NCBI RefSeq assembly: GCF_020283565.1
Contig: NC_060059.1
Location: forward strand, 35,394,338 to 35,458,337
DNA: 64,000 bases
Direction: 5' to 3'
Source: Trifolium pratense
Taxonomy: Eukaryota > Streptophyta > Magnoliopsida > Fabales > Fabaceae
Below are positions 13,684 through 43,400 of the stretch, one piece after another (position 1 is the stretch's first letter; each line of letters starts with the position of its first letter). The notes beneath the pieces are model-generated. The model saw only the letters and a list, made by a program, of their open reading frames with translations, did not search any database and had not been told where the DNA came from. Both the position numbers and the translations under genes were made by a program.

Positions 13684-13716
<33 letters not shown>
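12451..13716. other. AT-rich spacer
   Basis: No gene, RNA or clear element. About 12537-12615 repeats TTAGTTAG words, and 13691-13716 is a (TA)n microsatellite that abuts the foldback element. Confidence 0.5.

Positions 13717-13719
<3 letters not shown>

Positions 13720-15739: not shown

Positions 15740-15741
<2 letters not shown>
13717..15741. mobile_element. 2-kb foldback transposon with nested inverted repeats
   Basis: The ends are GGGGTTTTCTAACTTAGACC on the left and its inverse (GGTCTAAGTTAGCAGCCCCC) on the right. Matching continues inward for at least 120 bases (GGTGCACCTT, CAACAGGGGCATTTCTGTAA, ACGCGCCCC) and further in patches such as GGCAGCCACGTGTCA / CACGTGGCCTGCC. Each arm then has two tandem copies of a roughly 139-bp unit (ACTCGATTATTTCGTCGTAAA...GAGACTTGGTTCG; 14142-14400 and, inverted, 15145-15418). 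The centre is an array of small hairpins. Each terminus also contains its own short palindrome (CTAACTTAGACC...GGTCTAAGTTAG). (TA)n flanks both sides, so the duplication cannot be read. No transposase; class unproven, Mutator-like foldback is a guess. Confidence 0.8.
14404..15101. repeat. Array of 14 hairpin units (CTGAAACCATT...AATGGTTTCAG)
   Basis: Fourteen 32-bp units each start CTGAAACCATT and end AATGGTTTCAG or a close variant, so each unit is its own inverted repeat with a loop such as TTGCTGGTAA or TACCAGCA. The spacers also come in inverted pairs (GAGAGTTGTAAT / ATTACAACTCTC; AAGCAAATAACTAATAATC / its reverse). A larger direct period of 259 bases is visible: the word TTTCAGAGAGTTGTAATC occurs at 14431 and 14690. 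Unit 11 has a damaged right half (GGTTGCAC). Confidence 0.85.
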
Positions 15742-15785
<44 letters not shown>

Positions 15786-16861: not shown

Positions 16862-17200
16862 GCACAAGTGGAGAAAATCTTCCACGGTGCACGAGTGAAT
16901 GATAATATTATAACGAATACGAATTTTACAAAATTCACTGTTGGATTGAAAGTTTATATCGTATAGATCATCCATAAATTTTTTGAAAATCAGTTGATAT
17001 GTTATTGAGACCCATCAAAATTAACGGTTTATGGTTTTTTATTGACTACCGTTAATTTTGACCGGGCTCCATGACATATCAAATGATTTTTAATTTTTTT
17101 CAAATTTTTTATAGATGATCTATACAACATAAACTTTCAATCCAACAGTGAATTTTGTAAAATTCGTATTCATTATAGTATAATTGTTAACTTGTGCCCC
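16862..17200. mobile_element. MITE related to the one at 3731-4121
   Basis: Arms AACGAATACGAATTTTACAA (16913 on) and TTGTAAAATTCGTATTCATT (to about 17175) are inverse copies, and pairing continues through GATTGAAAGTTTATATCG / AACATAAACTTTCAATCC. Outermost, GCACAAGT and ACTTGTGC are mirrored. Its inner arms share long stretches with the element at 3731-4121, but the termini differ, so the two are relatives with different ends. Confidence 0.65.
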
Positions 17201-17968: not shown

Positions 17969-20900
17969 TCAAGGCAAAGGTACAGGGAGTTTCCATTTAG
18001 AAAATTCGACCAAGTTTCTGTTTACAAATGATCCATTGTGCAGCCAAAATGTTTCAGCTGATTGGTGAAACTGCCTTACTTTCCTTTGCAGTTCCCACAT
18101 GATTCCACGCATTGCCGAACAAGATTCTGAATCTGAAGCATAGACCCACATGCACCTAACTTGTCGACCACGAGCTATTATTGCCTCTATGTCTTTATCT
18201 GCACAGATCAATCAATACATTCGAAGGTAAAAAAAAGGGCATGATGGGTATTGGGTATTGGTTATTGAAACTTGGAGGTAAATGGTTGACGATTTTTACC
18301 TGGAATGGATTCCAAATACTCCAATAGTTCTGGACCTATTCGACTGGATGGCCACTTTATTGATATTTGACTGTAATCGATGACATTCTGGAACGGCAAT
18401 TCTATTTGATCTGACAATATAACTGGAACACATTCCTTTGAAATGGAAAAATATATGGTTATTTCTTTTCATTTAAACCAGTCTTTAGGGTGAAGAACAA
18501 ATAGGAAGGGGAGAAACATACCACAAAAAAGGACTCATAAAAGCGAAGGGTCCAAGATGACTCCCCACGTGGAGCGAGGCAAAACTTGGAGTTGCGCAGG
18601 TGTTCAAAATAATCTTTCCTTCCCAGCTTTTCACCTCCACTAAATTTCAAATCTGGACATTCCAACTGTTTATACCATCAATATATGTTTCATAAATTTT
18701 TTTGTATGATCGCACAATATTAAGTATAATTCTCCTGTTAAAACAATGGTGGGAGAAATTGCTGGGAAATATCAGAACAACTAACATGTAATCTGAAGAA
18801 ACTAAAGAAGTGTGCAATAGCCAATGGAAGTAAATTACCAAACAATGGACACGATGTAATTAGATCTTTGCGTGTTCTAATAAACCAAACTGTTTAAATA
18901 ACTGAACTTATGAACAAAGTTCTCGAACCGAACAGGATTTTTAGAAACAAGTTCACGTGAACACAAGTTCGGTACAAACTGACCAAATCATTTCACAATA
19001 CAGTTCGGTGAACACAAGTTTTCTGCAAAAAACTGTTGCACGAGAAAAACCATGTCAGAGAATTATTCTCTCCAATTTCGGCAAGAACGACGAAAACCTA
19101 AATCCCAAATATCATAATTTTAATTGTGGAATCTCCTTCACTATCACTCATGTAGGTCCCAAATCCACAAAATAGGGACCACCACCAAGATGGAATGAAT
19201 TGTTCCTAATTTATACTATGTGAATCACTCCCCTACAAATTGAGTCTCTTTTACTTTGTTTTTGCCTTTAGGAGCTGATGATCATCTCAAACTTCAAAAA
19301 CCTGCTCTCTCTCTCCAACTCGGTTAAGGAGTTAGTGTTTCCCTCTGATATCTAAATCTCTGTTGCTTCTTTGTGTATGTGTTAATTATTTGTGTGATTT
19401 TTTAATTTGTTTATAATAATCACAATTGATTTCCCATTTCTTCCAAATTTTCTAGTTACAACTCTTCATTGTTTCTGCCGGATTTAGTAAGCAGTTGCGG
19501 ACTTGCCAATAATAGATTTAACATTTAATTTTATTATATAACTTAAGTTCTATCAAAATAATCTCATGGACAAGTAGCTGTTTCTCATAATTACCTAGGT
19601 ACTTGGCCAAGTATTTATTGTTAGGATCTCCGTTGTTTTGAAACTCAGCGCACAATGTGTCTAAAGATACTGCTTCAAGTTAGCAATACCAAGGTAGTCA
19701 AGATCAAGTGTCAACTCGTAGGATCGTACGATCCAACATGCTCCGATCTGGTCAAGATTGTTTTCGCCACCGGCGCATGTGGTCAAGATTGAGCATTTTC
19801 GGGCAAGATCGTAACATGCTGGATAATTCGCAACTTTTTTCCCGCGCTTGTTAACTGGGTCAGGTTTTGTTAAAAAACCCAGTTTACTTAAAACACACAC
19901 ATTTCCTTTACTTTTCTCATCAACAATGGAATTGGAAACCCTGCAATGCCGTCCACCTCTAATTCTGGCGACGTCGTGCCTGTTTCCTACCTTCATCGCC
20001 TCTGTTTCCTTACTGTTGTTCTGTTTCCGGCTGTAGAATGAAGACCGACCTAGCATGGCAATACCGTATTCTTGTTGAAGCTTAAAGAAAAGTGAAGCGT
20101 GACTTCTGTCAACAAGAATTTGCATATGTGCTTGATTGAAGCATCATCTGGCTGGAACTAGATAGATGCTAAGCCTTGTTTAACGGTTCCAGATGATATC
20201 AAGAAAGCTATGGTGGATATTGTGAATGGCTTACAAAAAAAGTTGCTGAAAAAGTTTTCTGCTTTTGACATTGAAAGTGACAACAATGTTGAAGCTGATC
20301 ATGAGGTTGCTGCTGATTCAAGTGGAAAGAGGAAAAGTTTAAGGGAGATACCACACAAGGATATGTTCAAAAGAGGAATCACTACACTTACACAACAAAC
20401 CACAATCAATGGTGTCTAGCAGTGTCCTTACATGTGTCTAGCAGTTTCGAACCATGATTGTGGTTTGTGTAAGTGTAGTGACTTCTCTTTTGAACATATC
20501 CTTGTGTAAGTGTAGTGACTTCTCTTTTGAACATATCCTTGCGTGGTATTTCCCCTAAACTTTTCTCTTTCCACTTCAATCAGCAGCAACCTCATGAACA
20601 ACTTTAGAATCATTGTCACCTTCAATGTCAAAAGCATATGACTTTTTCAGCAACTTTTTTTGTAAGCCATGAACAATATCCATCATAGCTTTCTTGATAC
20701 TATCAGGAACCATTAAACAAGGCTTAGCATCTCTACTAGTTCAAGCCAAATGATGCTCCAATCGATAAGCACCTCCTGTAAATTCTTGTTGACAGACGTT
20801 ACACCTCACTTTTCTTGAAGCTTCATCAACAAGGACACAATATTGCCATTCTGGGCCAGTCTTCATTCCACGGCCATTCTTTGCAACCCTAATTGAGGCA

Positions 20901-23900
20901 GAAGCTACAGAGGCTGAACATTCTGAGACCCACCACCTGAAGCCATTACTATCTTGTGAAAGAAAAAAAAATGAAAGAGAATTTGGGGAAACAAGACCGA
21001 TGACACAGAACAAAAGCAAGGAAACAGAGGCAATGACGATGAAGGAAAGAGGGGTGGCGAAGGAAGGAAACAGGCACGACATCGCCGAAATTAGAGGTAG
21101 ACGGCGTCGCATGGAGGAGAGGAATCGCAGATTAGGGTTTCCAATTCCATCGTTTGTAAGAAAAGTGAAGGAAACACGCGTGTTCTCAGTGTTCGAACGC
21201 AACCTGGTTAGGAAGCCCAGGAAAACAGGTCACGAAAATACCCAGGCCAGCATGTTACGATCTTGCCCGAAAAAGCTTGATCTTGACCACAAGTGACGAA
21301 AACAATCTTGACCAGATTGGGGCACAATGACACGTTGGATCGTATGATCCTACGATTTGACACTCGATCTTGACTATTTTGATGTCATGCAACCAAAATG
21401 TTATTTTCCGAGGGCTACACTGTATATTGACTGATAGCAATTTAGTCTGTAAAGAATCTTAAGTGCTAGTCTTCAGAATTTTAAATATTGATATGAATTT
21501 ATTTTGATATTGAACTGTGATATGATTTGTCGACTTTTAATTGACATATGTTGTAGAGGCTAGTTGACAAAAACAGTTTTTGAACTAGTTTTGAGTTTTA
21601 ACCACTTCGTAAAATCAGTTCAGAACAGTTCAAGAAACCACTTAATAAAACAGTTTGGTTCGACAATTCAAAACTGGTCCACTGAACCAAAGTTCCAGTG
21701 CATCAAAAAGAGTTTGGTTTGACCATACTGGTTTCTAATTCAATTCAATTTTCACTTGTGAACTAAACAATGACCAAGTAAATGGATTACTATCTATCAG
21801 CCATTGCATTCGCTTTAGCATAACAACATTCTGAATGTAGGTAACAAAATCACTATTAGAACTCAAATTAAAACAAAATAATGAAAGAAAGTATTCTGCC
21901 AATAAGATAACTTCACTAATAGAACTAACCAGTCACTGTTTCAGATGACATACCTTCTCTGGGAATTGTTTTGAAAGCTCTATTAGCTGCAGACGGCCAG
22001 CTTTTCCTTGTGCACGTCCTAAATAATTTGCCAAGTACTTCCGCTTAGACAGAGGCAAAGGCTGGATCATGGGAGACCCAGTCTTGGTCATACCATCTTC
22101 GACATTACCTGGAATGATTATATCTTTCCATGTATTAAAAGCACTAGTATCTCTCTTATCAGTGCGATCCCCCTACATTGAATTGCAAAAGAACAAACTT
22201 TAAAAACAATAACCTTTCATTTCATGACAACTTCATGAATTTAACCTTTCATTCTTGGATGATTCAAGCCCCAATAGTTAAAGATATGAAAATATAGAGG
22301 TTTTTCAACAAACAAATATGAAGGGCAAGTTTGGAAGAATAAAAATAAAGGTTTTTCAATTTGATCTCTCTTTTTTGTTCCGAAATGGTCTCTTGTTTTT
22401 CAAAGTTACACCAATATGGTCCCTCTTTTATTTTTTATTCCAAAATGGTCTACTGTTTTACAAAATTTGTACCAAAATAGACATTTTTTTGGTTCTAGAA
22501 TGGTCCATTATTTTGTAGAATTTATACCATAGTGATACTCTCAATACCACAATTTAAATGGAAAGAACCAAATTGATATATGAACTAATGTGTAGTTTCT
22601 GCTGTACCGGAATACTACTTCTGTTGATCAGTAGGGCTTATGTAGTCTCGGTTGTACAAAGATGACCGCTATTGTGAAGATGAAAAAACCATGTACAAAA
22701 TATAAAGATGACTTAGAAAGAAATATTAAAAAAAAATTGTTTATCATCCTTCAACTTTTGAACAATGGGTATCCATGATTGAGAGCAGGAATAAGAATCA
22801 ACGGTGTCTTCCTGAATGAGAGAACCTAAACTAACTTACTAATCATCTAACTCCTTGTATCTTCTCTGCTTTTGTTTATAACAGCCTAACAAAACAACAT
22901 ATTCAATCAGATTTCCTTACAAGGCTGTCTCTTATGTCTTAAATAAATTCCAATGTGTATTGTAACAAAGTCTGCCAACTTGATTCCTTGGCCCATCTTG
23001 ATGTAATCGATTCTTTCCTAATTAAGGGCCGAACCTAGCAAACAAAAGAGTGCGGGATTTAAACTTTACTTCTCAATTACTCCAATGCTTATTTTTTATA
23101 AATGTAACATTGCTAACAAAATATCAATACAATATTCTAGAATGAAATCCTCCAGGGCTTTCACGTTCATGGCCAGGACAGAGGATTGTTAAATTCATTT
23201 AATCAAAGGTGAATGACTACAGGACAGAGGAATGTTAAATTCTTTTAATCAAAGGTGAGTAATCACTACTCAGTTCACGGAAACTTTTAACTTTTACCCC
23301 TAGTTGGCCAGTTCAACAAAAAGAAAGGAAAAATCAAAATGAAAACCAACACTGTAAAAATTAAGGTTGAGATATGTTCAAGTTTTGCCTCATTGTTATT
23401 CCCTGCTGTTTCACATCACATACATTACATTTGGTACTTCTTTCCTCAGCTTGTTCCAAACTTCACATAATTCCATCTCCTAATTACTAAAGACATTATT
23501 ACACCAAACAGTAACACACAGTTTGGTTTACAATTGTCATTTCAGTGTTTCTGGTAAACATACAAAACCAACAATTTAAGTTGTGGTTCACAACCAAAAT
23601 TGCGACCAAAACACCTAGATTTCTCATCTTCACAACTACAATTGCAGCCTAACTAACCACATTTTCGATTATTTTCATAAAGCAAGCAACCATAACTTAA
23701 AACCTTTGATAAAACCTATAAAACTATGAGGAAAAGTAAAAGTTCACCTCAGGTGTAAGAATAATGGAGCGATTTATATATGTTGCCCAAGACTTGAACA
23801 AGTGAGCACCAGCTCCACTAAAAACAAAGCAATTAACAAAGCATGTATATTAGCTAATAGGAAACCTTACCAATGTCTAAATTCATATAAAGAAACATAA

Positions 23901-28029: not shown

Positions 28030-28360
28030 ATAATTGTATATTTATTGAGATATATGGTGGACTATCTATGGTGAACCACATATAATGTTGGTCCACCTAA
28101 TACATTTGGTGTTAAAAGCTAATGGAGAGGACTTTTTTTTGAACGATAAATATATTATTATTAATAACCGGTCTCTGACAAGACAAACAGAGACCGAGAA
28201 AAACGGAACTACAAAACAAAGGTGTCGTATATAACGGAGAGGACCATTGTGACTAACGGTCATATAGTTAAGGGACGAAAACATACATTTTTCTTTCTTT
28301 AAGGACCATTGTAAAACCTAAAATGTCTTTAAGGAACCATTAAACTAATTAAACCTTTAT
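28030..28360. mobile_element. Truncated relative of the 6103-7053 element
   Basis: GGTGGACTATCTATGGTG and GGTCCACCTAATACATTTGG are followed by a right end GGACCATTGTAAAACCTAAAATGTC...ACTAATTAAACC, the same wording as the right half of the element at 6103-7053. The left terminal repeat is missing, so this is a fragment. A short block at 28132-28205 inside may be a further insertion. Confidence 0.5.
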
Positions 28361-29791
28361 TTTTGTATCAGAATATACTCCCTCCAGTCCTTTTTATAAG
28401 GAACAATTTGAAAAAAACATACGAACCAAGAAACTTATATTTCTTATTAAAAATTCTAAAACTTTACGATCTATTCCAAAACAAAACTCGGTGTATTAAT
28501 TTATTCTTGTCTATTGTAAATTGTAATTAAAATTTCATATAGCAAATTGTAATTTCGGTTGAACTTAATGAAAATTGTAATTAAAATTTCATATAGCAAA
28601 TCTTCGATGAAGATGCCTCTAGCTGAATTTCTTTTCTTCATTGTCATGTTTCCTGCACAGATTTATTAATTAAGACATTAATCAATGGTATTATTGTTAA
28701 AAAATCCACCAAGAGATCCTTTTATTTACTCAAGCAAAATATACTTTTAAGATAACACAATTTAATCAAGCAGTCCTCCAATAAATATCCATGCAATTAA
28801 CATAAAATTTGGTTGTTGCTTTTACTAGATAAAGAGCAAGTTGGCATGAAATTATGTTTATGTGTGCAAGTCTAAGATTTACATTATGTCAACTTATAAT
28901 TTGGTCATATTTGAATCAATAATGAAAAACTAATTATTAGCATCTATTTAATTGAACTTTGCGACCCGGACATATTTTTTAATCTATTTTTTTTTGGTAA
29001 GGTCTTTTTTTAATCTAAATTGATCGATGCAACTATAGCTCAAAACAAATTATAACAATAAAAAGAAAACAATTTTTTATGATCTATTTTGTTTGAAAAA
29101 AAATTATGTTAGCAAAAATATTTTTAAAAGAGCATAATATTTTTGAAAAAAGAGATAGCAATAACTAACAAGTAAATTACATATATAGGATAAATGAAAT
29201 GATTTAGACACACCTCTTATCCTCAACTTTTAACGAAAGTTGAATATGGGTATGAACGAATTAATGATTTAAATTACTCTGCTTTGAAAAATATATCCAA
29301 GAAGGGTTTGACTAATATGGACCTCTAAAATAATAGTCAAAACTAATATGGGTTTGACTAATAATTATTTGACTAATATTTTAAATCACTAGTCATCATA
29401 ATTAAGAGTTTGGCTAATATGGTTGATATAAAAGTTAAAATGTAAATAACTTTATAATTATGATAGTTTTTACTAAAATTATTTTATGACTATTATTTTG
29501 TTCATATTATCAACTTTTTAGTCAAAATAATTAAGGGTTTGACTAATATCTCTAAAAAAATGTAAAATCATTTTTAGTAAATTTATTAAAATATTTTTAA
29601 AAAATTATATTTCCTTTTAATATTGTAAAATTCACATTCTGAAGCAACGTTTCGTTTTCTCTAATCATTACATTTCTTAATATTGAAATAATTCAGTATG
29701 GATTATTTTTTATTTAAAGGGATTATGGTTTCGCTTATTATAATCATTCCAGTCTAAACAATTTCCTCTCCTTTTCTCTTAAATTGCAAAA
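28361..29791. other. AT-rich spacer with repeated TTTGACTAATAT words
   Basis: No gene. About 29300-29560 contains at least five scattered copies of (G)TTTGACTAATA(T/A), suggesting an expanded simple motif or a decayed repeat. Confidence 0.4.
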
Positions 29792-30040: not shown

Positions 30041-30363
30041 TTCCTTTATGATTTTATTAATCTTTATTAGCATTCATGTAACAATGGTTTGAAAAGGAAT
30101 TAATAAAATATAGTTATCATATTTTTTGTGTTCATATCTCCTTGCTTCTCTTCTCCTTTTGTGTGATCAATTTCTTATTTATTTTCACTTTGTATCTTAT
30201 TTTTTAACTTTTCGTACCAAATAACCTTCTAAACTCGTGTTAAAAAAATATTTGACTAAATTGCACTTTGGACCTGTTAGAGTCACATAGCTTGCAAGCC
30301 AAGGCATTTGTATAGCAGGCCAAGGCATTGTATAGCAGGCCTTAGTGGCGCGCGCTAGTGGGC

Positions 30364-30549
30364 TTGCTTTCTCATTAATCATTCCAATCATACAAGCTCT
30401 CTATATATAGAGAGATACACATACACAAGCCTAACAACTTGGCCCAATGTCAAGGCAAGCCCACTAGCGCGCGCGCCACTAAGGCCTGCTATACAATGCC
30501 TTGGCCTGCTATACAAATGCCTTGGCTTGCAAGCTATGTGACTCTAACA
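30364..30549 (-). repeat. Minus-oriented LTR of the left arm (lacks its last 18 bases)
   Basis: Read on the minus strand it begins TGTTAGAGTCACATAGC at 30549 and matches the right LTR through GAGAAAGCAA, then breaks at 30364. The final ATCCCC...ACAACA part of the complete LTR is mostly missing. The break shares TTGC (30364-30367) with the plus-oriented LTR fragment that follows to its left. The CTCTCTATATATAGAGAG palindrome contains the TATA region. Confidence 0.85.
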
Positions 30550-30638
30550 TACACTCCCCTAAACTGAACATCCCATACAGTTTACATCAAACAAAAATGC
30601 AAAAGACAATGCTAAACAAACTGAAAGAACCACAGGAC

Positions 30639-33600
30639 TTAAGCCAAACTGTGAACATCACAAAGTCCAAGCCTTTCTCTGAATCTGCAAAATGACTCAA
30701 GCTTCAAAGCCTTGGTCATAATGTCTGCTATCTGATCTTGAGTGCTGCAATGAATGAGCTTCACCACTCCATCCTTGGTCAAGTCTCTCAGAAAATAGAA
30801 CCTCACATCAATGTGTTTAGATCTGCCATGTAACACTGGATTCATAGAAAGCTTGATGGAGGAGCTATTGTCACAATGTATAACAGTACAACCTTGCTGT
30901 TGATTCAATTGCTCAAGAATTCTTCTTAGCCAAATTCCTTGACAGGCACAAGCAGTGGCTGCCACAAATTCTGCTTCAGTAGTTGACAATGTAACAATAG
31001 CTTGCTTTTTTGATGACCATGATATAGGGCTTGAGCCAAGCATAAAGACATACCCAGATGTACTTTTCCTATCATCAAAGTCTCCTGCATAATCACTATC
31101 AGACCATCCTTGTAACTTCAAATCATCACCCCTTTTGTACAAAATGCCAAGACTCAGTGTCCCTTTCAGATATCTCATCACTCTTTTTGCAGCCATCAAA
31201 TGAGCTTCCTTAGGCTTTTCCATGTATCTTGCAATTAAGCAGACTGAGAAAGTGAGGTCAGGCCTAGTAGCTAACAAATACATCAGACAACCAATGATCT
31301 GCCTGTAGTTTGTAGCATCAACAATAGATCCATCTTGATCCCTAGTCAACTTGTTACCAGGCACTATAGGGCTGTTCACACTATTACATTGTGCCATGTT
31401 AAACCTCATCAAAAGATCTCTTGCATACTTTTGCTGATAGATAAAAATTCCATGATCAGTTTGCATGACTTCCACTCCAAGAAAAAACCTCATCCTTCCT
31501 AAGTTTGTCATAGAGAACTTTCTTTCCATAGAATGTTTAAATTCTTCAAACATTAGGGCACTACTCCCAGTGTAAATCAAGTCATCTACATATATGCTCA
31601 CAATTAGCATATTTCCCTTTCCATCAAATTTCATAAACAATGTATGTTCATGAGGACATTTCTCAAACTTTTCTTCTGCAAAATAGGATTCTATCTTGCT
31701 GTACCAAGCCCTTGGTGCTTGTTTAAGACCATACAATGCCTTTTTAAGTTTATACACCTTACCATCTTGCTTATCATAACCTGGAGGTTGATCAACAAAC
31801 ACATTTTCAACTAACTCTCCATGCAAAAAGGCACTTTTCACATCAAGTTGGTACACAGGCCAACCTTTTGAAGCTGCAACAGCAAGTATTGTTCTAATAG
31901 TATCCCATCTAGCAACAGGAGCAAATACCTCATTAAAGTCAATTCCATATTGCTGAGTATACCCTTTGGCCACTAACCTGGCTTTAAGCTTCTCAACCTC
32001 TCCATGTTCATTATACTTTGTCTTGTAGACCCATTTCACACCAATTTTCTTAACTCCTTTTGGAAGATCTACCAGCTCCCAAGTATTGTTTTTCTCAATG
32101 GACTCAATTTCTTGATCCATAGCTTGTTTCCAGCCCTCAACTTTAGCTGCTTCATCATAAGAAATTGGATCTTCATTATTGCAAAAAGCAGCTAAATTCT
32201 GCAATTCCTCTTGACTGTTTAAATCTGTGACATAGTCTCTAGTCCAACCAGGTGGCTTTCTGGTTCTTGGAGGTAATGAAGTCTCATCTGCTTCAGTACT
32301 ACTATTGTCATCATGATCATCATGATCATTTTCCTCATCAGCATGATTTCCATTGTTCACTGAACTAGTTGGCTCATCTTCTCCAACCATTGGTTCAGTT
32401 ACTTCAAGATCAATGCTTTGATAGTCTTCTACTATCTTTCTTTTGTTCTTATCTTCCCAATTCCATCCTAGATTCTCATCAAACACAACATCTCTACTGA
32501 TGATAATCCTTTTTTGAATGGGATCATAGAGTTTATAGGCTTTTGACTCTTCACTCACACCCAAAAGAACACACTTGATTCCTTTTGCATCTAATTTCTT
32601 TCTTTTAACATCAGGTACATGCACATACCCTATACAACCAAACACTCTAAAGAATGAAACAGAAGGTTTTGTACCTCTCCAAGCTTGCTCAGGTGTCATG
32701 TTCTTCACAGACAAGGTAGGACTTCTGTTGATCACATAAGTAGCCCAAACTACTGCTTCTGGCCAAAACCTCTTAGGGACATTTCTTCCATTCAGCATAC
32801 TCCTGACTACATTCATTAATGTCCTATTCTTCCTCTCAGATACACCATTCTGTTGAGGAGTATAGGCTGCAGTCAATTGCCTTTTTATGCCATACTCACT
32901 GCAAAAATCATTAAAAGTATCAGAAAGGAATTCTCCACCTCTGTCTGTTCTAAGACACTTAATTGACTGATTTGACTCATTTTCAACTAATGCCTTGAAC
33001 CTTTTAAACACAGCAAGAGCACTTGATTTCTCTTTTAAAGGATAGGTCCATGTTTTCCTGCTGTAATCATCTGTAAAGGTAATGAAGTATCTACAACCTC
33101 CATTAGATGTGGGTGTGATGGGACCACATATATCTGAATGAATCAATTCAAGCTTTTCAGTGGCTCTCCATGATGATGTTTTAGGGATTGAATCCCTGTG
33201 TTGCTTGCTGATTACACAATCACTGCACAACTCTTGACTTTCTTGCAGCAGGGGCAATCCATTGACCATATCCTTCTTTGCAAGTGTGTGTAGACCTTTG
33301 AAACTCAAATGGCCATACCTGTGATGCCAAAGAGAACCCTCACTCTCATGAGTTGTCTTTAAGCAGCTTGGAGTGATAACTGGACAAAGTAGAATGTACA
33401 TTCTATTGACTGTCATGGGAGTTGACACAATCAGGCCTCTTTCTTCATGAAATATCTTGCAAGTATCTTTGTTAAAAACAATTGTGAGATTCTTTTGTTG
33501 TAGCTGCCCTATGCTTAACAAATTGTTTCTCAGATTTGGTAAATAGTATACATCAGTGATGACACTAACTTTGCCTTGCAAGCTTATCTTCACACTTCCC

Positions 33601-34343
33601 TTACCCATTACAGACATTGTGGAATTATCACCAAGCTTAACAGTCTCACGAAATGTATCATCATAGTCAAATAACCATTCTTTGGTGCCAATCATATGAT
33701 TGCTACAGCCAGAGTCTAAAAACCAAACCTGATTAGTGTTGACATGTGATTGATCTTGAGCCATCATTAACATTTCTTCATGCTCATCAAATTCAGCAAA
33801 ATTTGCATTTTCCTCCCAAGTTGGACACTCATTCTGATAGTGGCCAAGCTTATGACATCTATAGCATTCTACAAATTCTTTTGAGGTATTTGCAGCTGAT
33901 CTACCACCTCTCCCACGCCCTCTTGAGCTGGTACGACCCCTACCCCTAGAATTTGCAGATCCTCTTCCAAGATTGGAATTAGACACCTTCAGAGCTTGCT
34001 CTTCCTCTTTTACTTTGTGAATCTTCATTCTTCCCTCATGAACAAGTAAACTACTCTGGAGTTCATCTATGGACATGGTGGTCACATCATGTGATTCCTC
34101 AATTGAGCATACAACATACTCAAATTTGGAAGTCATTGATCGCAAGATTTTCTCAACAATGTTGCCATCAGTCAATCTTTCACCATGTGATGTCATTTTG
34201 TTGGCAATAGCAAGAGTTCTTGCAAAGAAATCTGTGACAGATTCATCTTCTTTCATGCAAAGAATTTCAAAATCACGCCTCAATGATTGCAATTGAGCAC
34301 GTTTCACCTTATTAGAACCTTGATACTTTCTTCTCATAGATTC
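30639..34343 (-). CDS. Copia gag-pol, left copy, missing the gag start
   Basis: Open for 1232 residues from an internal Met (34337) to the stop at 30639; sequence match with the plus copy begins at 34343. It lacks the first 96 gag residues because the inverted arm stops there. The rest holds the zinc knuckle CYRCHKLGHYQNEC, protease DSGCS, integrase, reverse transcriptase with YVDD and RNase H. Comparing the two translations I find one change: Glu here and Lys in the plus copy, in RAT(E/K)KLELIHSD, caused by one G/A difference (33158 versus 35946). Without its own start region and 5' LTR it is unlikely to be expressed as a protein. Confidence 0.9.
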   Translation of the reverse strand, partial: ESMRRKYQGSNKVKRAQLQSLRRDFEILCMKEDESVTDFFARTLAIANKMTSHGERLTDGNIVEKILRSMTSKFEYVVCSIEESHDVTTMSIDELQSSLLVHEGRMKIHKVKEEEQALKVSNSNLGRGSANSRGRGRTSSRGRGRGGRSAANTSKEFVECYRCHKLGHYQNECPTWEENANFAEFDEHEEMLMMAQDQSHVNTNQVWFLDSGCSNHMIGTKEWLFDYDDTFRETVKLGDNSTMSVMGKGSVKISLQGKVSVITDVYYLPNLRNNLLSIGQLQQKNLTIVFNKDTCKIFHEERGLIVSTPMTVNRMYILLCPVITPSCLKTTHESEGSLWHHRYGHLSFKGLHTLAKKDMVNGLPLLQESQELCSDCVISKQHRDSIPKTSSWRATEKLELIHSDICGPITPTSNGGCRYFITFTDDYSRKTWTYPLKEKSSALAVFKRFKALVENESNQSIKCLRTDRGGEFLSDTFNDFCSEYGIKRQLTAAYTPQQNGVSERKNRTLMNVVRSMLNGRNVPKRFWPEAVVWATYVINRSPTLSVKNMTPEQAWRGTKPSVSFFRVFGCIGYVHVPDVKRKKLDAKGIKCVLLGVSEESKAYKLYDPIQKRIIISRDVVFDENLGWNWEDKNKRKIVEDYQSIDLEVTEPMVGEDEPTSSVNNGNHADEENDHDDHDDNSSTEADETSLPPRTRKPPGWTRDYVTDLNSQEELQNLAAFCNNEDPISYDEAAKVEGWKQAMDQEIESIEKNNTWELVDLPKGVKKIGVKWVYKTKYNEHGEVEKLKARLVAKGYTQQYGIDFNEVFAPVARWDTIRTILAVAASKGWPVYQLDVKSAFLHGELVENVFVDQPPGYDKQDGKVYKLKKALYGLKQAPRAWYSKIESYFAEEKFEKCPHEHTLFMKFDGKGNMLIVSIYVDDLIYTGSSALMFEEFKHSMERKFSMTNLGRMRFFLGVEVMQTDHGIFIYQQKYARDLLMRFNMAQCNSVNSPIVPGNKLTRDQDGSIVDATNYRQIIGCLMYLLATRPDLTFSVCLIARYMEKPKEAHLMAAKRVMRYLKGTLSLGILYKRGDDLKLQGWSDSDYAGDFDDRKSTSGYVFMLGSSPISWSSKKQAIVTLSTTEAEFVAATACACQGIWLRRILEQLNQQQGCTVIHCDNSSSIKLSMNPVLHGRSKHIDVRFYFLRDLTKDGVVKLIHCSTQDQIADIMTKALKLESFCRFRERLGLCDVHSLA

Positions 34344-34478
34344 TACTTTGGTATCAACGAGCCTTTCACTAAGACTTGTTTGTTAGAAAGTTTGTTACAG
34401 TTTGTTACAACGGTGCAACCGTTTCTGTTACTCTTCTTCCTCGTTCTTTCTTCGTTTCTTGCTCTCTAAGCTTCATCC
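34344..34478 (+). promoter_or_regulatory. Primer binding site and gag leader of the plus copy
   Basis: TGGTATCAACGAGCC (34349-34363) resembles the copia primer binding site complementary to the initiator tRNA-Met 3' end (usual form TGGTATCAGAGC), here with an altered middle. It should lie just after a 5' LTR, but the inverted left arm ends only five bases before it. The pyrimidine-rich leader CTTCTTCCTCGTTCTTTC precedes the gag ATG at 34479. Confidence 0.7.
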
Positions 34479-37400
34479 ATGGCGGATCACCCTTCGTTTA
34501 TGCCTCCTTCCATTCCTAAATTCGACGGATTCTATGATCATTGGGCTGAATTGATGGAAAATCTACTGCGTTCGAAAGAATATTGGAGTTTGATTGAGAA
34601 TGGAGTTGTGGTAGCTCCTGCAAATGCTACACAAGATCAAATCAAAGCTGCTGAGGAAAGTAAATTGAAAGATCTGAAGGTAAAGAACTACCTCTTTCAA
34701 TCTATTGATCGCTCCATCCTTGAAACCATTCTTGTACGAGGCACTTCTAGAGACATTTGGGAATCTATGAGAAGAAAGTATCAAGGTTCTAATAAGGTGA
34801 AACGTGCTCAATTGCAATCATTGAGGCGTGATTTTGAAATTCTTTGCATGAAAGAAGATGAATCTGTCACAGATTTCTTTGCAAGAACTCTTGCTATTGC
34901 CAACAAAATGACATCACATGGTGAAAGATTGACTGATGGCAACATTGTTGAGAAAATCTTGCGATCAATGACTTCCAAATTTGAGTATGTTGTATGCTCA
35001 ATTGAGGAATCACATGATGTGACCACCATGTCCATAGATGAACTCCAGAGTAGTTTACTTGTTCATGAGGGAAGAATGAAGATTCACAAAGTAAAAGAGG
35101 AAGAGCAAGCTCTGAAGGTGTCTAATTCCAATCTTGGAAGAGGATCTGCAAATTCTAGGGGTAGGGGTCGTACCAGCTCAAGAGGGCGTGGGAGAGGTGG
35201 TAGATCAGCTGCAAATACCTCAAAAGAATTTGTAGAATGCTATAGATGTCATAAGCTTGGCCACTATCAGAATGAGTGTCCAACTTGGGAGGAAAATGCA
35301 AATTTTGCTGAATTTGATGAGCATGAAGAAATGTTAATGATGGCTCAAGATCAATCACATGTCAACACTAATCAGGTTTGGTTTTTAGACTCTGGCTGTA
35401 GCAATCATATGATTGGCACCAAAGAATGGTTATTTGACTATGATGATACATTTCGTGAGACTGTTAAGCTTGGTGATAATTCCACAATGTCTGTAATGGG
35501 TAAGGGAAGTGTGAAGATAAGCTTGCAAGGCAAAGTTAGTGTCATCACTGATGTATACTATTTACCAAATCTGAGAAACAATTTGTTAAGCATAGGGCAG
35601 CTACAACAAAAGAATCTCACAATTGTTTTTAACAAAGATACTTGCAAGATATTTCATGAAGAAAGAGGCCTGATTGTGTCAACTCCCATGACAGTCAATA
35701 GAATGTACATTCTACTTTGTCCAGTTATCACTCCAAGCTGCTTAAAGACAACTCATGAGAGTGAGGGTTCTCTTTGGCATCACAGGTATGGCCATTTGAG
35801 TTTCAAAGGTCTACACACACTTGCAAAGAAGGATATGGTCAATGGATTGCCCCTGCTGCAAGAAAGTCAAGAGTTGTGCAGTGATTGTGTAATCAGCAAG
35901 CAACACAGGGATTCAATCCCTAAAACATCATCATGGAGAGCCACTAAAAAGCTTGAATTGATTCATTCAGATATATGTGGTCCCATCACACCCACATCTA
36001 ATGGAGGTTGTAGATACTTCATTACCTTTACAGATGATTACAGCAGGAAAACATGGACCTATCCTTTAAAAGAGAAATCAAGTGCTCTTGCTGTGTTTAA
36101 AAGGTTCAAGGCATTAGTTGAAAATGAGTCAAATCAGTCAATTAAGTGTCTTAGAACAGACAGAGGTGGAGAATTCCTTTCTGATACTTTTAATGATTTT
36201 TGCAGTGAGTATGGCATAAAAAGGCAATTGACTGCAGCCTATACTCCTCAACAGAATGGTGTATCTGAGAGGAAGAATAGGACATTAATGAATGTAGTCA
36301 GGAGTATGCTGAATGGAAGAAATGTCCCTAAGAGGTTTTGGCCAGAAGCAGTAGTTTGGGCTACTTATGTGATCAACAGAAGTCCTACCTTGTCTGTGAA
36401 GAACATGACACCTGAGCAAGCTTGGAGAGGTACAAAACCTTCTGTTTCATTCTTTAGAGTGTTTGGTTGTATAGGGTATGTGCATGTACCTGATGTTAAA
36501 AGAAAGAAATTAGATGCAAAAGGAATCAAGTGTGTTCTTTTGGGTGTGAGTGAAGAGTCAAAAGCCTATAAACTCTATGATCCCATTCAAAAAAGGATTA
36601 TCATCAGTAGAGATGTTGTGTTTGATGAGAATCTAGGATGGAATTGGGAAGATAAGAACAAAAGAAAGATAGTAGAAGACTATCAAAGCATTGATCTTGA
36701 AGTAACTGAACCAATGGTTGGAGAAGATGAGCCAACTAGTTCAGTGAACAATGGAAATCATGCTGATGAGGAAAATGATCATGATGATCATGATGACAAT
36801 AGTAGTACTGAAGCAGATGAGACTTCATTACCTCCAAGAACCAGAAAGCCACCTGGTTGGACTAGAGACTATGTCACAGATTTAAACAGTCAAGAGGAAT
36901 TGCAGAATTTAGCTGCTTTTTGCAATAATGAAGATCCAATTTCTTATGATGAAGCAGCTAAAGTTGAGGGCTGGAAACAAGCTATGGATCAAGAAATTGA
37001 GTCCATTGAGAAAAACAATACTTGGGAGCTGGTAGATCTTCCAAAAGGAGTTAAGAAAATTGGTGTGAAATGGGTCTACAAGACAAAGTATAATGAACAT
37101 GGAGAGGTTGAGAAGCTTAAAGCCAGGTTAGTGGCCAAAGGGTATACTCAGCAATATGGAATTGACTTTAATGAGGTATTTGCTCCTGTTGCTAGATGGG
37201 ATACTATTAGAACAATACTTGCTGTTGCAGCTTCAAAAGGTTGGCCTGTGTACCAACTTGATGTGAAAAGTGCCTTTTTGCATGGAGAGTTAGTTGAAAA
37301 TGTGTTTGTTGATCAACCTCCAGGTTATGATAAGCAAGATGGTAAGGTGTATAAACTTAAAAAGGCATTGTATGGTCTTAAACAAGCACCAAGGGCTTGG

Positions 37401-38465
37401 TACAGCAAGATAGAATCCTATTTTGCAGAAGAAAAGTTTGAGAAATGTCCTCATGAACATACATTGTTTATGAAATTTGATGGAAAGGGAAATATGCTAA
37501 TTGTGAGCATATATGTAGATGACTTGATTTACACTGGGAGTAGTGCCCTAATGTTTGAAGAATTTAAACATTCTATGGAAAGAAAGTTCTCTATGACAAA
37601 CTTAGGAAGGATGAGGTTTTTTCTTGGAGTGGAAGTCATGCAAACTGATCATGGAATTTTTATCTATCAGCAAAAGTATGCAAGAGATCTTTTGATGAGG
37701 TTTAACATGGCACAATGTAATAGTGTGAACAGCCCTATAGTGCCTGGTAACAAGTTGACTAGGGATCAAGATGGATCTATTGTTGATGCTACAAACTACA
37801 GGCAGATCATTGGTTGTCTGATGTATTTGTTAGCTACTAGGCCTGACCTCACTTTCTCAGTCTGCTTAATTGCAAGATACATGGAAAAGCCTAAGGAAGC
37901 TCATTTGATGGCTGCAAAAAGAGTGATGAGATATCTGAAAGGGACACTGAGTCTTGGCATTTTGTACAAAAGGGGTGATGATTTGAAGTTACAAGGATGG
38001 TCTGATAGTGATTATGCAGGAGACTTTGATGATAGGAAAAGTACATCTGGGTATGTCTTTATGCTTGGCTCAAGCCCTATATCATGGTCATCAAAAAAGC
38101 AAGCTATTGTTACATTGTCAACTACTGAAGCAGAATTTGTGGCAGCCACTGCTTGTGCCTGTCAAGGAATTTGGCTAAGAAGAATTCTTGAGCAATTGAA
38201 TCAACAGCAAGGTTGTACTGTTATACATTGTGACAATAGCTCCTCCATCAAGCTTTCTATGAATCCAGTGTTACATGGCAGATCTAAACACATTGATGTG
38301 AGGTTCTATTTTCTGAGAGACTTGACCAAGGATGGAGTGGTGAAGCTCATTCATTGCAGCACTCAAGATCAGATAGCAGACATTATGACCAAGGCTTTGA
38401 AGCTTGAGTCATTTTGCAGATTCAGAGAAAGGCTTGGACTTTGTGATGTTCACAGTTTGGCTTAA
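34479..38465 (+). CDS. Copia gag-pol polyprotein, complete right copy
   Basis: A single frame of 1328 residues for particle formation, cDNA synthesis and integration. The order is that of Ty1/copia: gag with zinc knuckle CX2CX4HX4C (from residue 254), protease with DSGCS (Asp at about 304), integrase with HHCC zinc site (LWHHRYGHLS...CSDC) and catalytic D498, D561, E597 (spacing D35E), reverse transcriptase with QLDVKSAFLHG and YVDD (about 1012-1015), RNase H with SDSDYAGD and STTEAE, ending IADIMTKAL. No stop or frameshift, so the insertion is young or selected. Lys 490 replaces the Glu of the left copy. Family lineage within copia is not assigned. Confidence 0.95.
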   Translation: MADHPSFMPPSIPKFDGFYDHWAELMENLLRSKEYWSLIENGVVVAPANATQDQIKAAEESKLKDLKVKNYLFQSIDRSILETILVRGTSRDIWESMRRKYQGSNKVKRAQLQSLRRDFEILCMKEDESVTDFFARTLAIANKMTSHGERLTDGNIVEKILRSMTSKFEYVVCSIEESHDVTTMSIDELQSSLLVHEGRMKIHKVKEEEQALKVSNSNLGRGSANSRGRGRTSSRGRGRGGRSAANTSKEFVECYRCHKLGHYQNECPTWEENANFAEFDEHEEMLMMAQDQSHVNTNQVWFLDSGCSNHMIGTKEWLFDYDDTFRETVKLGDNSTMSVMGKGSVKISLQGKVSVITDVYYLPNLRNNLLSIGQLQQKNLTIVFNKDTCKIFHEERGLIVSTPMTVNRMYILLCPVITPSCLKTTHESEGSLWHHRYGHLSFKGLHTLAKKDMVNGLPLLQESQELCSDCVISKQHRDSIPKTSSWRATKKLELIHSDICGPITPTSNGGCRYFITFTDDYSRKTWTYPLKEKSSALAVFKRFKALVENESNQSIKCLRTDRGGEFLSDTFNDFCSEYGIKRQLTAAYTPQQNGVSERKNRTLMNVVRSMLNGRNVPKRFWPEAVVWATYVINRSPTLSVKNMTPEQAWRGTKPSVSFFRVFGCIGYVHVPDVKRKKLDAKGIKCVLLGVSEESKAYKLYDPIQKRIIISRDVVFDENLGWNWEDKNKRKIVEDYQSIDLEVTEPMVGEDEPTSSVNNGNHADEENDHDDHDDNSSTEADETSLPPRTRKPPGWTRDYVTDLNSQEELQNLAAFCNNEDPISYDEAAKVEGWKQAMDQEIESIEKNNTWELVDLPKGVKKIGVKWVYKTKYNEHGEVEKLKARLVAKGYTQQYGIDFNEVFAPVARWDTIRTILAVAASKGWPVYQLDVKSAFLHGELVENVFVDQPPGYDKQDGKVYKLKKALYGLKQAPRAWYSKIESYFAEEKFEKCPHEHTLFMKFDGKGNMLIVSIYVDDLIYTGSSALMFEEFKHSMERKFSMTNLGRMRFFLGVEVMQTDHGIFIYQQKYARDLLMRFNMAQCNSVNSPIVPGNKLTRDQDGSIVDATNYRQIIGCLMYLLATRPDLTFSVCLIARYMEKPKEAHLMAAKRVMRYLKGTLSLGILYKRGDDLKLQGWSDSDYAGDFDDRKSTSGYVFMLGSSPISWSSKKQAIVTLSTTEAEFVAATACACQGIWLRRILEQLNQQQGCTVIHCDNSSSIKLSMNPVLHGRSKHIDVRFYFLRDLTKDGVVKLIHCSTQDQIADIMTKALKLESFCRFRERLGLCDVHSLA

Positions 38466-38554
38466 GTCCTGTGGTTCTTTCAGTTTGTTTAGCATTGTCT
38501 TTTGCATTTTTGTTTGATGTAAACTGTATGGGATGTTCAGTTTAGGGGAGTGTA

Positions 38555-38758
38555 TGTTAGAGTCACATAGCTTGCAAGCCAAGGCATTTGTATAGCAGGC
38601 CAAGGCATTGTATAGCAGGCCTTAGTGGCGCGCGCGCTAGTGGGCTTGCCTTGACATTGGGCCAAGTTGTTAGGCTTGTGTATGTGTATCTCTCTATATA
38701 TAGAGAGCTTGTATGATTGGAATGATTAATGAGAAAGCAATCCCCTTTGTTTACAACA
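38555..38758 (+). repeat. Complete 204-bp LTR at the right end
   Basis: It begins TGTTAGAGTCACATAGC and ends TTTACAACA, so TG...CA. A purine-rich tract AGTTTAGGGGAG lies just before it. It contains the tandem words CAAGGCATT(T)GTATAGCAGGC twice, a (GC)n block and TATATATA near 38693. The right border follows from the GGACC duplication. Because it faces away from the palindrome, any promoter activity would read toward PIN6. Confidence 0.85.
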
Positions 38759-39155
38759 GGACCCCTAACTTTTATAAACTTGCGATTTTATTCCCTACCT
38801 TTCATAATAACACTTTCGACCCCCTAACTTTAGCCCCTTTCGTAAAAGATTGACCCCCCACTAATTTTGACCAAGTCATTGCATATATGACAAGTGACTC
38901 ACATGCAACGTTAACATGTTCTGCCACGTGGACAATGACTGACTCGCATGCTACGTCAGCATATGTGGCAAGACATGCAAACATGACGTGTTAGTCACTT
39001 GCCACATATGCATTTACTTGATCAAAATTAATGAGGACCAACATTTTACAAAATGGACTAATTTATGGGGCTAAAAGTGCTATTATGAAAGTTAGTGAAT
39101 CAAAATCGTAAGTTTGTGTAAAAATTAGAGAATAGAAAAAGCAATTTAGTCAAAA

Positions 39156-39670: not shown

Positions 39671-40406
39671 ATGGTGACAGGACAAGATTTATACAACGTG
39701 ATGTGTTCAATGGTACCATTATATTTTGCAATGTTAGTTGCTTACGGTTCAGTAAAGTGTTGCAAAATGTTCACTTCAGATCAATGTTCAGGCATAAACA
39801 GATTTGTGGCAGTTTTTGCTGTTCCAGTTCTATCTTTTCATTTCATTTCTCTCAATAATCCTTATCAAATGGACATTAAATTCATCTTAGCTGATACAAT
39901 TTCTAAGCTTATTGTTCTCTTTTTACTTTCCATTTGGGCTATTTTCTTTACTAAAGGCTCATTGGATTGGGTTATAACTTTGTTCTCAGTTGCTACTTTG
40001 CCTAATACCCTTGTTATGGGTATCCCTTTACTTCAAGCTATGTATGGTGATTTCACTCAAAGTCTCATGGTGCAACTAGTTGTCCTTCAATGCATCATAT
40101 GGTATGTAATATTAGCTAGTGATATTTAATTTCTTTAATTTTTTGTGTGTGTTAATCTTATCGTTTTCAGAGAAAAAGCGTTCTGATAATTCTGAATTCG
40201 ACTACACAGTAAATAAAATTTCTAAGAATTGTTTATCTCAAGAATCAAACTTTTGTTATCCCGAACGAATTCCCAACAAACTTCTATACAATAATATATG
40301 TTTGTACTAGAGGACAAATAAATGGATTGATTGAAATTACTTGTTTGTTTATTTCTTTCTCAAGTTTGTAATTGAAACATAACTTATTTTAGTAAAATTC
40401 TATTAT

Positions 40407-40478
<72 letters not shown>

Positions 40479-43400
40479 TTTCTTTAATTTATGAAAATGA
40501 AGAGAGAAATGACATAAATTCCCAACAATTGATTAAAAGTAAGAACATGTTTTTCAAAACATTTTTAGAGATGTATACCATTGTACAAAATGAAAAATAT
40601 TGAAATGTAAAATGTCCATAAAAATTGAAGAATTTTTTTTAAAAAAATTCTCATACCAATGCTTTAAAGTTTTATTCAACCATGTTCTTCTACTAATTTA
40701 TGAAACAAATGACTTTTTTAAATTAAAGAATGGAAATATTATTATCAACGTGATACAAATGACCCTTTTACAATACTTTTTAAAAAATTTAAATTCCACT
40801 GCTTGAGATTACAAGGTCAAACACCGAATTAACACCTTATAGATCAAGAGATAGATTAAAAAATTACCTGTTATTTAATAAGTTTTTCTCTTTAAAATAA
40901 ATCTTTTTTTTTTCTAAATTTCTTAAAACAAGAAATGACAGGTTGATTACTCGTACTAATTAAGTTAATTTCATAACTGCATTTTCAAATAACAATAAAA
41001 TATTAAACTCATCGGATGTCAATATAAAATTAATTTATGGAAAAAATTGTTATAAAAAATAATTATATCGAAAATGCATATTATCATTTATCTTAATTAA
41101 TTATTCTGGTCAAAATATATTTTTAACATGTAATGATTGTATATTGTATTTTTATTTTACATCTAATTGTTTAAATTATTTAATTTTGGGTTCAGGTATA
41201 CTCTACTTCTCTTCCTATTAGAATACAGAGCAGCCAAACTCTTGATCAAAAACTCATTCCCAGGAACCACAGCAGCCTCCATAGAAAAATTTGAACTCGA
41301 CAGCGACGTAATTTCCCTCTATGGCCATGACGCGCCGCTGACAACCCAATCAGAAACTGATGAAAACGGACGAATCAAAGTTCGAATTCGACGATCAATT
41401 TCCTCAGCACCACCAGGATCAACCTCATCAATAACCAACACCATTACACCTACAAGACTCTCTAATCTTTCCAATGCCGACATTTTCTCCATCAACACAC
41501 CGATGAATTTTCTCGACAATGCCAGTCCACGTCTCTCCGGTTATGCCTCGACCGATGCTTATTCGTTGCAGCCAACACCTCGGAGGTCTAATGTTAATGA
41601 AATGGATGTGATTGGTACACCGATGTTGGGGAGGTCGCCGGTGGGTGGAAGGAGGGGTTTAAGGGGGGATTCGCCGGTGGTGGATCGAGGGAGGGTGGTT
41701 TGGGAGTCACCGGAGAAATGGTGGGATGAAGAGAGACAAGGATGCAAGGACATTACTATGTCAGGTACGTGTTTGTTATTATGTTCCTTAGGACAATATA
41801 GTGAATGAATATGGTGTGGTCCAGCATGCTAACAAAAATACACAAGAGTAAAAGTTATTTTTGTTTGCATGTGAAAAATTAACTTTTATTTTACATTCAA
41901 TCGTTGGTTGTTAGATAAATAACCTGAATCTCTATGTTGTTTTGTCTTGTATTGTTATAATTGTTTTTTACGAATTAAACGAGATCTAGCTGTTTTTCAA
42001 GGTATACATAGTTGGACGCAATTCTAAATAATTTTCATTTAATTACACACAAAAATTTGAAAATATTAATTGAAAAAAAAGATAAAATAGTATTAAATAA
42101 TGTGACTAATTAAATTATTATACATTTTAAATTTTTTCATTTGTGTTTTTCCAAACAGTTTTTCTAATGTGCAGAGACAAACTTAAAGCGAAAACCAAAA
42201 ATTATTGAAGATTATTGTGTATAAAGTTTGTGGAATTATTTACAAATAGGTCCATGTAGATCTGTATAATATTTTTAAAAAAAGTCAAGAAAGGAATAAA
42301 GCCTACCAAATAAAATCGAAAAGATGGATCCATTAAATTATTTCAATTGTCACGTGAATAAATGTTGTCATGTACTAGTAAGAGTGGCATATGAATAAAA
42401 CATTTCCTCCTCTTCATTCGTTTTTTTTTTTTTTTTTTTTTTTTGGTAGAGCTCTTCATTCGTTTTATTATGTGTCACTTCAAATTTAAAATAATGTAAA
42501 TTTCATAAAATTTTGAATAGTTATTAAGTAATAAAGTTAGCACTGTCAATTGTCAACAAATATTTTAGAAATTTTAAACAAATTCAAAATTTGAAACCCC
42601 CTACTTTTGTTTTGAGGCTGTGTTGATCATGGTCAACCCTGGTTGAGGGGATGCCAAAGTCAATCTAAACATAATACTACTACTCTTAAGAATCTAAACA
42701 TAATATATAGTATTTTTAAAATCGAGAGTTGAGTCTAACTCAAACTTACATAACATGTTTGTAAAGTGAAAATTACCTCTTATTAATAAACACATATTTA
42801 AGTCATCTCGCAATCGATATAAATTTTTTTAACAAGTACGGTACTCCATAAGATTACGTTAAGACTACTTCACATATTCATTTAGCCATCCTAACATCAT
42901 AATAAATCAGCCCTTAACTCGACCACTTGACCACACGCAAACATAATTTATATACTCACTCGGCTATATCGCTGCGTAGTATGAGTTGGGTTCGGTCTTA
43001 TAGACCAAAATACTTGAGATTTGGATCATCTCCTTTTCTTTTTCTCTCCAAAACCAAACACAGCCCCGCGCCCGACCCCAAATGGTGAAGTACGTCATCA
43101 GTTTGAATTACTGTAGTTTTTCCAGGGAGTATCCGAATGGCAGTGTTTTGGCAATAACACAGTATATGTGTTTGTTCTGTAGCGCATGCCCATGCGGCCT
43201 TTCAGGTATAGGGTGTACCTTTTGTCCCCGACCATTGCCTATGTCTTTGTCCTATTCTCATCCATTCATTGCTATCATTTCTTCACCACGTTTAGTAATT
43301 TCTGAATTTGAACCTAAAACTAAACCATTACACCTTTGATGATCTTATGAATTGTAGCATGGATTTTTCTTATATTGATACATGCAAGTGTAGAGACTAG

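What the first reader, a model, noticed from the sequence alone, without database searches (positions are those of the whole stretch)
30275..38758. A whole copia palindrome integrated as one unit
Two copies of the same copia element lie head to head with arms of nearly 4 kb, and one 5-bp duplication (GGACC, 30270-30274 and 38759-38763) flanks the entire structure. Two independent or nested insertions would leave separate duplications. The order is LTR start, inverted [LTR to gag codon 95], primer binding site, full gag-pol, LTR. That looks like a reverse-transcription product in which the cDNA switched onto its complementary strand and back, then was integrated by integrase. Seen directly: order, symmetry (x pairs with 69104-x) and duplication. 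The mechanism is inference.
Basis: partly seen in the sequence, partly recalled or inferred. Interest (0 to 1): 0.9.

Follow-up and report, generated by a model that had tools for sequence, protein, structure and literature searches.

The report
Palindromic copia retrotransposon inserted as unit
A plant jumping gene of the copia type sits here as a nearly perfect 8.5 kb mirror image inside one normal insertion footprint, most likely because its copying enzyme took a wrong turn while making the DNA copy.

Summary
Window 30275-38758 is a Ty1/copia element in which 30364-34343 is the reverse complement of 34761-38740 (3980 nt, one mismatch, at 33158), bounded by a single 5-bp duplication, GGACC. 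The host looks like a papilionoid legume. Along the + strand: LTR 1-95, inverted [LTR 186 to gag codon 95], PBS, open 1328-codon gag-pol, full LTR. New here: (i) the left junction has a 4-nt microhomology, TTGC (7 of 8 over GGGNTTGC); (ii) the right junction lies 5 nt upstream of the presumed PBS, near where minus-strand DNA normally ends; (iii) the left LTR lacks positions 96-204; (iv) no target duplication flanks the inverted segment. Best reading: a detoured second-strand transfer. Plus-strand DNA started at LTR position 1, jumped at LTR 95 onto a sense template, copied backwards to gag codon 95, then jumped to the 3' end of minus-strand DNA, and integrase inserted the product. Rearrangement after insertion and assembly artefact are not excluded: no reads and no other family copy could be examined (11 of 11 own-genome searches unanswered). 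A new variant of known template-switch complexes; interest moderate.

The parts
30270..30274 (.). left target-site duplication GGACC
30275..30367 (+). left LTR fragment, LTR positions 1-95 with one GC unit fewer than the 3' LTR; stops short of the TATATA at LTR 141
30364..30367 (.). junction 1: 4-nt microhomology TTGC (LTR 92-95 and, inverted, LTR 186-183); 7 of 8 matches over 30360-30367
30364..30549 (-). inverted LTR, positions 1-186 of 204 exactly (to 190 with one mismatch), including the TATATA; would promote leftward, out of the element (inference)
30550..34343 (-). inverted internal region from the PPT side down to gag codon 95
30639..34337 (-). open frame of the inverted arm, 1232 aa, lacking the gag N-terminus; residue E where the forward copy has K
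34343..34344 (.). junction 2: inverted gag codon 95 joined to the sequence just upstream of the presumed PBS; no match to the known end of the LTR
34344..34760 (+). single-copy centre (TACTT, presumed PBS, leader, gag codons 1-94)
34349..34356 (+). presumed primer binding site TGGTATCA; matches the 3' end of initiator Met tRNA for 8 nt, after which the match breaks (tRNA recalled, not from a call)
   Evidence: sequence
34479..38465 (+). open gag-pol frame, 1328 aa: gag (PF14223), zinc knuckle (below the Pfam cut-off), Pol_BBD, pre-integrase, integrase core, SH3-like, RVT_2
38544..38550 (+). polypurine-tract-like AGGGGAG before the 3' LTR
   Evidence: sequence; assignment by inspection
38555..38758 (+). 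complete 3' LTR, 204 nt; TATATA at LTR 141; reads toward the PIN-like gene
38759..38763 (.). right target-site duplication GGACC

Best explanation
A real Ty1/copia insertion whose linear cDNA was already palindromic when integrase inserted it. Proposed steps. (1) Minus-strand DNA was made normally and stopped at or just past the PBS (established retroelement biology). (2) Plus-strand DNA began at the polypurine tract at LTR position 1 as usual, but at LTR 92-95 its 3' end left the minus strand and re-annealed, by TTGC or the imperfect GGGNTTGC, to a sense template at LTR 183-190, for instance the second co-packaged RNA near its 3' end. (3) It copied that template backwards through U3, pol and gag to gag codon 95. 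(4) It then jumped end to end onto the free 3' end of the minus strand beside the PBS, the place it normally reaches directly in second-strand transfer, and copied gag-pol to the end of the LTR. (5) Both ends were normal, so integrase inserted the molecule with one 5-bp duplication. Shown: order, identity, junction sequences, single duplication. Inferred: templates, order of the jumps, stage. The reverse order (the growing minus strand makes both jumps) gives the same sequence and is not excluded.
For: Single GGACC duplication and TG...CA outer ends; no duplication at the inverted segment; arms differ at 1 of 3980 sites, so they were made together or nearly so (245 to about 100,000 years by Poisson limits at two recalled rates). 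The start (LTR 1) and the landing (5 nt from the presumed PBS) of the plus-strand path are both canonical or nearly so, which also explains why LTR 96-204 is missing on the left. A chosen 6-position window at that landing covers 0.13% of a 4619-nt element. Microhomology of 4 nt or more arose in 2.0% of 200,000 random breakpoint pairs; the 7-of-8 form at a fixed register in 0.034% of 400,000. Template switching giving complex insertions with one duplication is described for plant elements (PMC1950507, main text read in two parts).
Against: The natural LTR-to-PBS spacer of this family is unknown, since no other copy could be found, so TACTT at 34344-34348 could be filler rather than element sequence. 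The presumed PBS matches the recalled tRNA end for 8 nt only. Junction 2 has no homology. Two abnormal jumps are needed. The landing window was chosen after seeing the junction. The GC-unit difference between left and right LTR is not explained by the model and would fit later drift as well. No reads were seen. A short-read search for close opposed LTRs in plants with many new EVD insertions found none, though its authors call it limited by fragment size (PMC11624286, passages).
Confidence: 0.66

Rival explanations
1. An ordinary copia element inserted first; later a break or stalled fork in its 5' LTR was repaired with two template switches or by capture of a cDNA piece, replacing LTR 96-204 by an inverted 4-kb copy.
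For: Microhomology at one junction and none at the other is typical of break repair. Capture of transposon cDNA at breaks and foldback inverted insertions, one end primed by microhomology and the other end-joined, are reported in yeast (PMC11724301, passages). It would keep the single duplication and outer LTR ends.
Against: The right edge falls at the LTR/PBS border for no reason in this model. The foldback inverted duplications in that paper are mostly about 5-34 bp, against 3980 nt here. Arms with 1 difference in 3980 need the repair to be very recent.
Confidence: 0.18
2. Assembly or sequencing artefact: a chimeric foldback molecule taken into the consensus over an ordinary element.
For: Long inverted duplications are a known long-read and amplification error (general knowledge); the arms are almost identical; no reads could be checked.
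Against: Two strand changes are needed, the flanks lie outside the mirror image, the centre is a 417-nt single-copy spacer rather than a hairpin tip, and the arms differ by a substitution.
Confidence: 0.12
3. Two separate insertions, nested or adjacent and recombined.
For: An antisense insertion of EVD into another EVD copy is reported in Arabidopsis (PMC11624286, passages).
Against: The inverted segment has no LTR at its right end and lacks 14-18 terminal bases of the LTR at its left end, and no exact duplication of 4-6 nt flanks it; recombination of two insertions would be expected to join different duplications.
Confidence: 0.02
4. Autointegration: integrase joined the element's own ends to its interior and produced an inversion.
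For: Known for retroviruses and Ty1 (recalled; no call).
Against: Neither internal junction has an LTR terminus (TG or CA end) joined to internal sequence, and autointegration would not be expected to duplicate 4 kb.
Confidence: 0.02

Closest known systems
Template-switching complex LTR retrotransposon insertions (Sabot and Schulman 2007, PMC1950507; main text read)
   Same: One 5-bp duplication around a composite of two element copies; highly similar outer LTRs; explained by abnormal template switching in reverse transcription
   Different: There the model has two cores in the same direction sharing an internal LTR (two Angela, one Squiq, one Opie complex); here the second copy is inverted and truncated, and the left LTR is a fragment
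HIV-1 proviruses with inversions or asymmetric LTRs (PMC9278108; passages)
   Same: Integrated products, with asymmetric LTRs attributed to misalignment in reverse transcription; inversions occur (n = 1 with inversion, n = 1 with inversion and deletion; 1.3% each, about 78 proviruses by my reckoning from the printed percentages)
   Different: The passages seen do not describe a palindromic duplication; [quoted passage not shown]
Antisense nested EVD insertion (PMC11624286; passages)
   Same: Same-family copies in opposite orientation at one locus, with possible hairpin RNA
   Different: Read by its authors as a second insertion into an existing copy
Mu killer-type inverted transposon duplication (cited in PMC11624286; original paper not seen)
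   Same: Inverted transposon duplication able to form hairpin RNA if transcribed
   Different: A DNA transposon (recalled); silencing is attributed to it there, not tested here
Foldback templated insertions at breaks (PMC11724301; passages)
   Same: Microhomology-primed inverted copying, other end captured by end joining
   Different: Mostly about 5-34 bp, at nuclear breaks in yeast

Membership tests
Ty1/copia superfamily (by coding homology) | gag, then integrase before reverse transcriptase in one frame | tested here: met
   PF14223, PF00665, PF07727 in that order on three pieces of one open frame
Ty1/copia superfamily (by coding homology) | LTR with TG...CA ends and a 5-bp duplication | tested here: met
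Ty1/copia superfamily (by coding homology) | tRNA primer binding site after the 5' LTR | tested here: inconclusive
   TGGTATCA at 34349 matches the recalled initiator tRNA for 8 nt only; the LTR that should precede it is replaced
Complete canonical LTR retrotransposon insertion | two complete LTRs in direct orientation | tested here: not met
   left LTR is positions 1-95 only
Template-switching complex insertion (Sabot and Schulman) | flanking 5-bp duplication around the whole composite | tested here: met
Template-switching complex insertion (Sabot and Schulman) | outer LTRs highly similar | tested here: met
   over the part present: 93 nt match LTR 1-95 with one 2-nt gap
Template-switching complex insertion (Sabot and Schulman) | two complete cores sharing an internal LTR | tested here: not met
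   second core inverted and truncated, no shared internal LTR; so it works like, but is not, that class
Nested insertion | inner element with its own duplication and both LTR ends | tested here: not met
   junction 2 has no LTR
Hairpin-RNA silencing locus (Mu killer-like) | transcription through the palindrome and small RNAs | not testable with these tools
   no RNA data; neither LTR copy that holds the TATATA points into the palindrome

The most novel reading that the evidence does not exclude
Second-strand transfer of a copia element can detour through an inverted copy of most of the element and still yield an integration-competent cDNA, so reverse transcription itself can plant ready-made kilobase palindromes, possible hairpin-RNA sources, beside genes in a single step.
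Probability: 0.5. Interest if true: 0.68.

Novelty: new variant of a known kind. Interest (0 to 1): 0.5.

Why it matters
The complex LTR insertions attributed to template switching that I could read about (PMC1950507) are composites sharing an internal LTR; an inverted one with a single duplication and a junction at the minus-strand end would record a failed second-strand transfer. If common, such palindromes would be a one-step source of inverted repeats, which can start small-RNA silencing, and would be missed by LTR finders that demand two full direct LTRs (inference). Here the unit lies 912 bp upstream of a PIN-like gene, with a complete LTR facing it.

Tried and rejected
Own-genome search for other family copies and for the LTR-PBS spacer: 11 of 11 identical genome-search requests did not complete, the machine being busy or out of reach. 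Relatives in public contigs: RT piece in viral contigs, 5 pattern matches, no confirmed relative (one search was my own frame error); gag alignment in genome contigs, 28 pattern matches, none confirmed; LTR start 20-mer in viral contigs, 0 matches.

Which arm carries the newer substitution at 33158 (K forward, E inverted): a motif pattern matched 45 of the 360 proteins held (120 of the 360 came from the search with that region); K in 12, E in 8, others in 25; undecided.

A 7-mer (GTATCAA) shared by the PBS and gag near junction 2 looked like a mispriming site, but 16.5% of 20,000 random window pairs share one; rejected. Autointegration, nested insertion and two-insertion recombination rejected on junction sequence.

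Literature: ten searches. Among the papers listed, none reports in its title, or in the start of the abstract shown, an integrated palindromic LTR retrotransposon with one duplication. Four of the lists were cut: 5 of 3,316 papers, 15 of 19, 15 of 123, 15 of 33. Passages of PMC12312487, PMC3187697 and PMC9238239 did not describe one either. The library lacks most subscription papers; one older retroviral strand-transfer paper was not held. Palindromic retroviral DNA forms are recalled from older work and were not found here.

Full report
What is there. The window is plant DNA. A 200-aa gag piece is 86% identical to an unnamed metagenome protein and 85% to one from Trifolium medium; one further protein, P0041 on an 818-nt contig, is identical over 72% of the piece and is listed without a source, as the tool does for proteins the window itself encodes. 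A glucuronosyltransferase exon in the window is 97% identical to Lathyrus oleraceus. At 30275-38758 (8484 nt) lies a Ty1/copia element in mirror-image form. Positions 30364-34343 equal the reverse complement of 34761-38740 over 3980 nt with one mismatch at 33158; extended to 30360 it is 3984 nt with two mismatches. The centre, 34344-34760, is single copy. One 5-bp duplication, GGACC, flanks the whole.

Anatomy. From the left: LTR positions 1-95 (30275-30367), with one GC unit fewer than the other LTR copies; inverted LTR from position 186 (190 with one mismatch) to 1; inverted internal region down to the first base of gag codon 95; then TACTT, TGGTATCA (presumed PBS; it matches the recalled initiator tRNA for 8 nt only), leader, an open 1328-codon gag-pol frame, a polypurine-like AGGGGAG, and a full 204-nt LTR. 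Scanned as three pieces, the frame has gag, integrase core and RVT_2 in copia order; the zinc knuckle is below Pfam's cut-off but its CCHC pattern and a YVDD motif are present. Relative to an ordinary element the left LTR lacks positions 96-204. Neither LTR copy that holds the TATATA (LTR 141) faces the gag-pol frame: the inverted LTR reads leftward and the 3' LTR reads right, toward a gene with a membrane-transport domain (PF03547 above cut-off in the first exon, just below it in the second ORF; the PIN label is my recognition) whose ATG is 912 bp away. The unit is therefore probably unable to transcribe itself (inference).

Junctions. Junction 1 joins LTR 95 to inverted LTR 186 across TTGC; upstream three of four further bases match (GGGCTTGC against GGGATTGC). 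In 200,000 random breakpoint pairs 2.0% had 4 nt or more; the 7-of-8 form at a fixed register came up in 0.034% of 400,000 (allow a few registers). Junction 2 joins gag codon 95 to TACTT, 5 nt before the presumed PBS, and shows no match with the known LTR end. A 6-position window there is 0.13% of a 4619-nt element, a figure computed after the fact. No exact 4-6-nt duplication flanks the inverted segment.

Mechanism. In normal reverse transcription (established knowledge), plus-strand DNA starts at the polypurine tract, copies the LTR and PBS, and is then transferred to the 3' end of the minus strand at the PBS. The sequence here reads as the same journey with a detour: it starts at LTR 1, leaves at LTR 95, copies a sense template backwards from LTR 186 to gag codon 95, and arrives at the same destination, the minus-strand end beside the PBS. 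That accounts in one stroke for the missing LTR 96-204, both natural outer ends, the single duplication and the near identity of the arms. The second RNA in the particle is a natural sense template; this is inference. The opposite order of jumps gives the same product. The arms imply a young event: point estimates of about 9,700 and 17,900 years at 1.3e-8 and 7e-9 per site and year (rates recalled; limits 245 to about 100,000).

Against. The family's natural LTR-PBS spacer could not be seen, because no other copy was found and 11 of 11 own-genome requests did not complete; relatives were sought without success in viral contigs and genome contigs. Later repair of an ordinary insertion would leave the same duplication, and its junctions could look alike; it only fails to explain the landing by the PBS. 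An assembly error cannot be excluded without reads, although it would need two strand changes. Which arm changed at 33158 is undecided. A short-read search for close opposed LTRs among new EVD insertions found none, within the limits its authors state (PMC11624286).

Known relatives. Sabot and Schulman (PMC1950507, main text read) described four composites with one duplication: two Angela complexes in Triticeae, one Squiq in rice and one Opie in maize, with cores sharing an internal LTR. The present case meets the duplication and LTR-similarity features but has an inverted, truncated second core, so it is filed as a variant that works alike. HIV-1 proviruses with inversions are a parallel (PMC9278108, passages). 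An antisense nested EVD insertion is reported (PMC11624286, passages). Ten searches in the open library, four of them with cut lists, listed no integrated palindromic LTR element with one duplication by title or visible abstract; most subscription papers are absent from it.

Verdict. Observation confirmed; interpretation plausible and sharpened, not proven. Interest 0.5.

Noticed in passing
window 39671-41808 (+): Gene with a membrane-transport domain (PF03547; PIN-like auxin carrier by recognition) begins 912 bp right of the palindrome's 3' LTR; a perfect AT run lies at 40411-40475.
   Followed up: partly
window 13677-15781: About 2.1 kb with 91% inverted ends (13677-13841 / 15618-15781, partly simple AT runs), inner inverted 152-nt blocks at 95%, and a tandem core (periods about 100 and 259), like a foldback or non-autonomous DNA transposon.
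   Followed up: partly
window 3778-4074 and 16911-17186: Two copies of a short element that match each other in both orientations (79% and 75%), so each is itself near-palindromic, MITE-like.
   Followed up: partly
window 6090-6228, 6924-7066, 28232-28361: A dispersed 130-140 nt repeat in both orientations at 77-81%.
   Followed up: no
window 2915-3654 and 4777-5519: Direct duplication of about 750 nt at 75% identity.
   Followed up: no
window 30347-30355 / 38627-38637: The left LTR has one GC unit fewer than both the inverted and the 3' LTR; slippage in copying or later drift, not decided.
   Followed up: partly
window 19661-21376: Inverted matches at 70% (19695-20011 / 21042-21376) around a short ORF that looks like a BED-type zinc finger by eye; Pfam gave no match for it.
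   Followed up: partly
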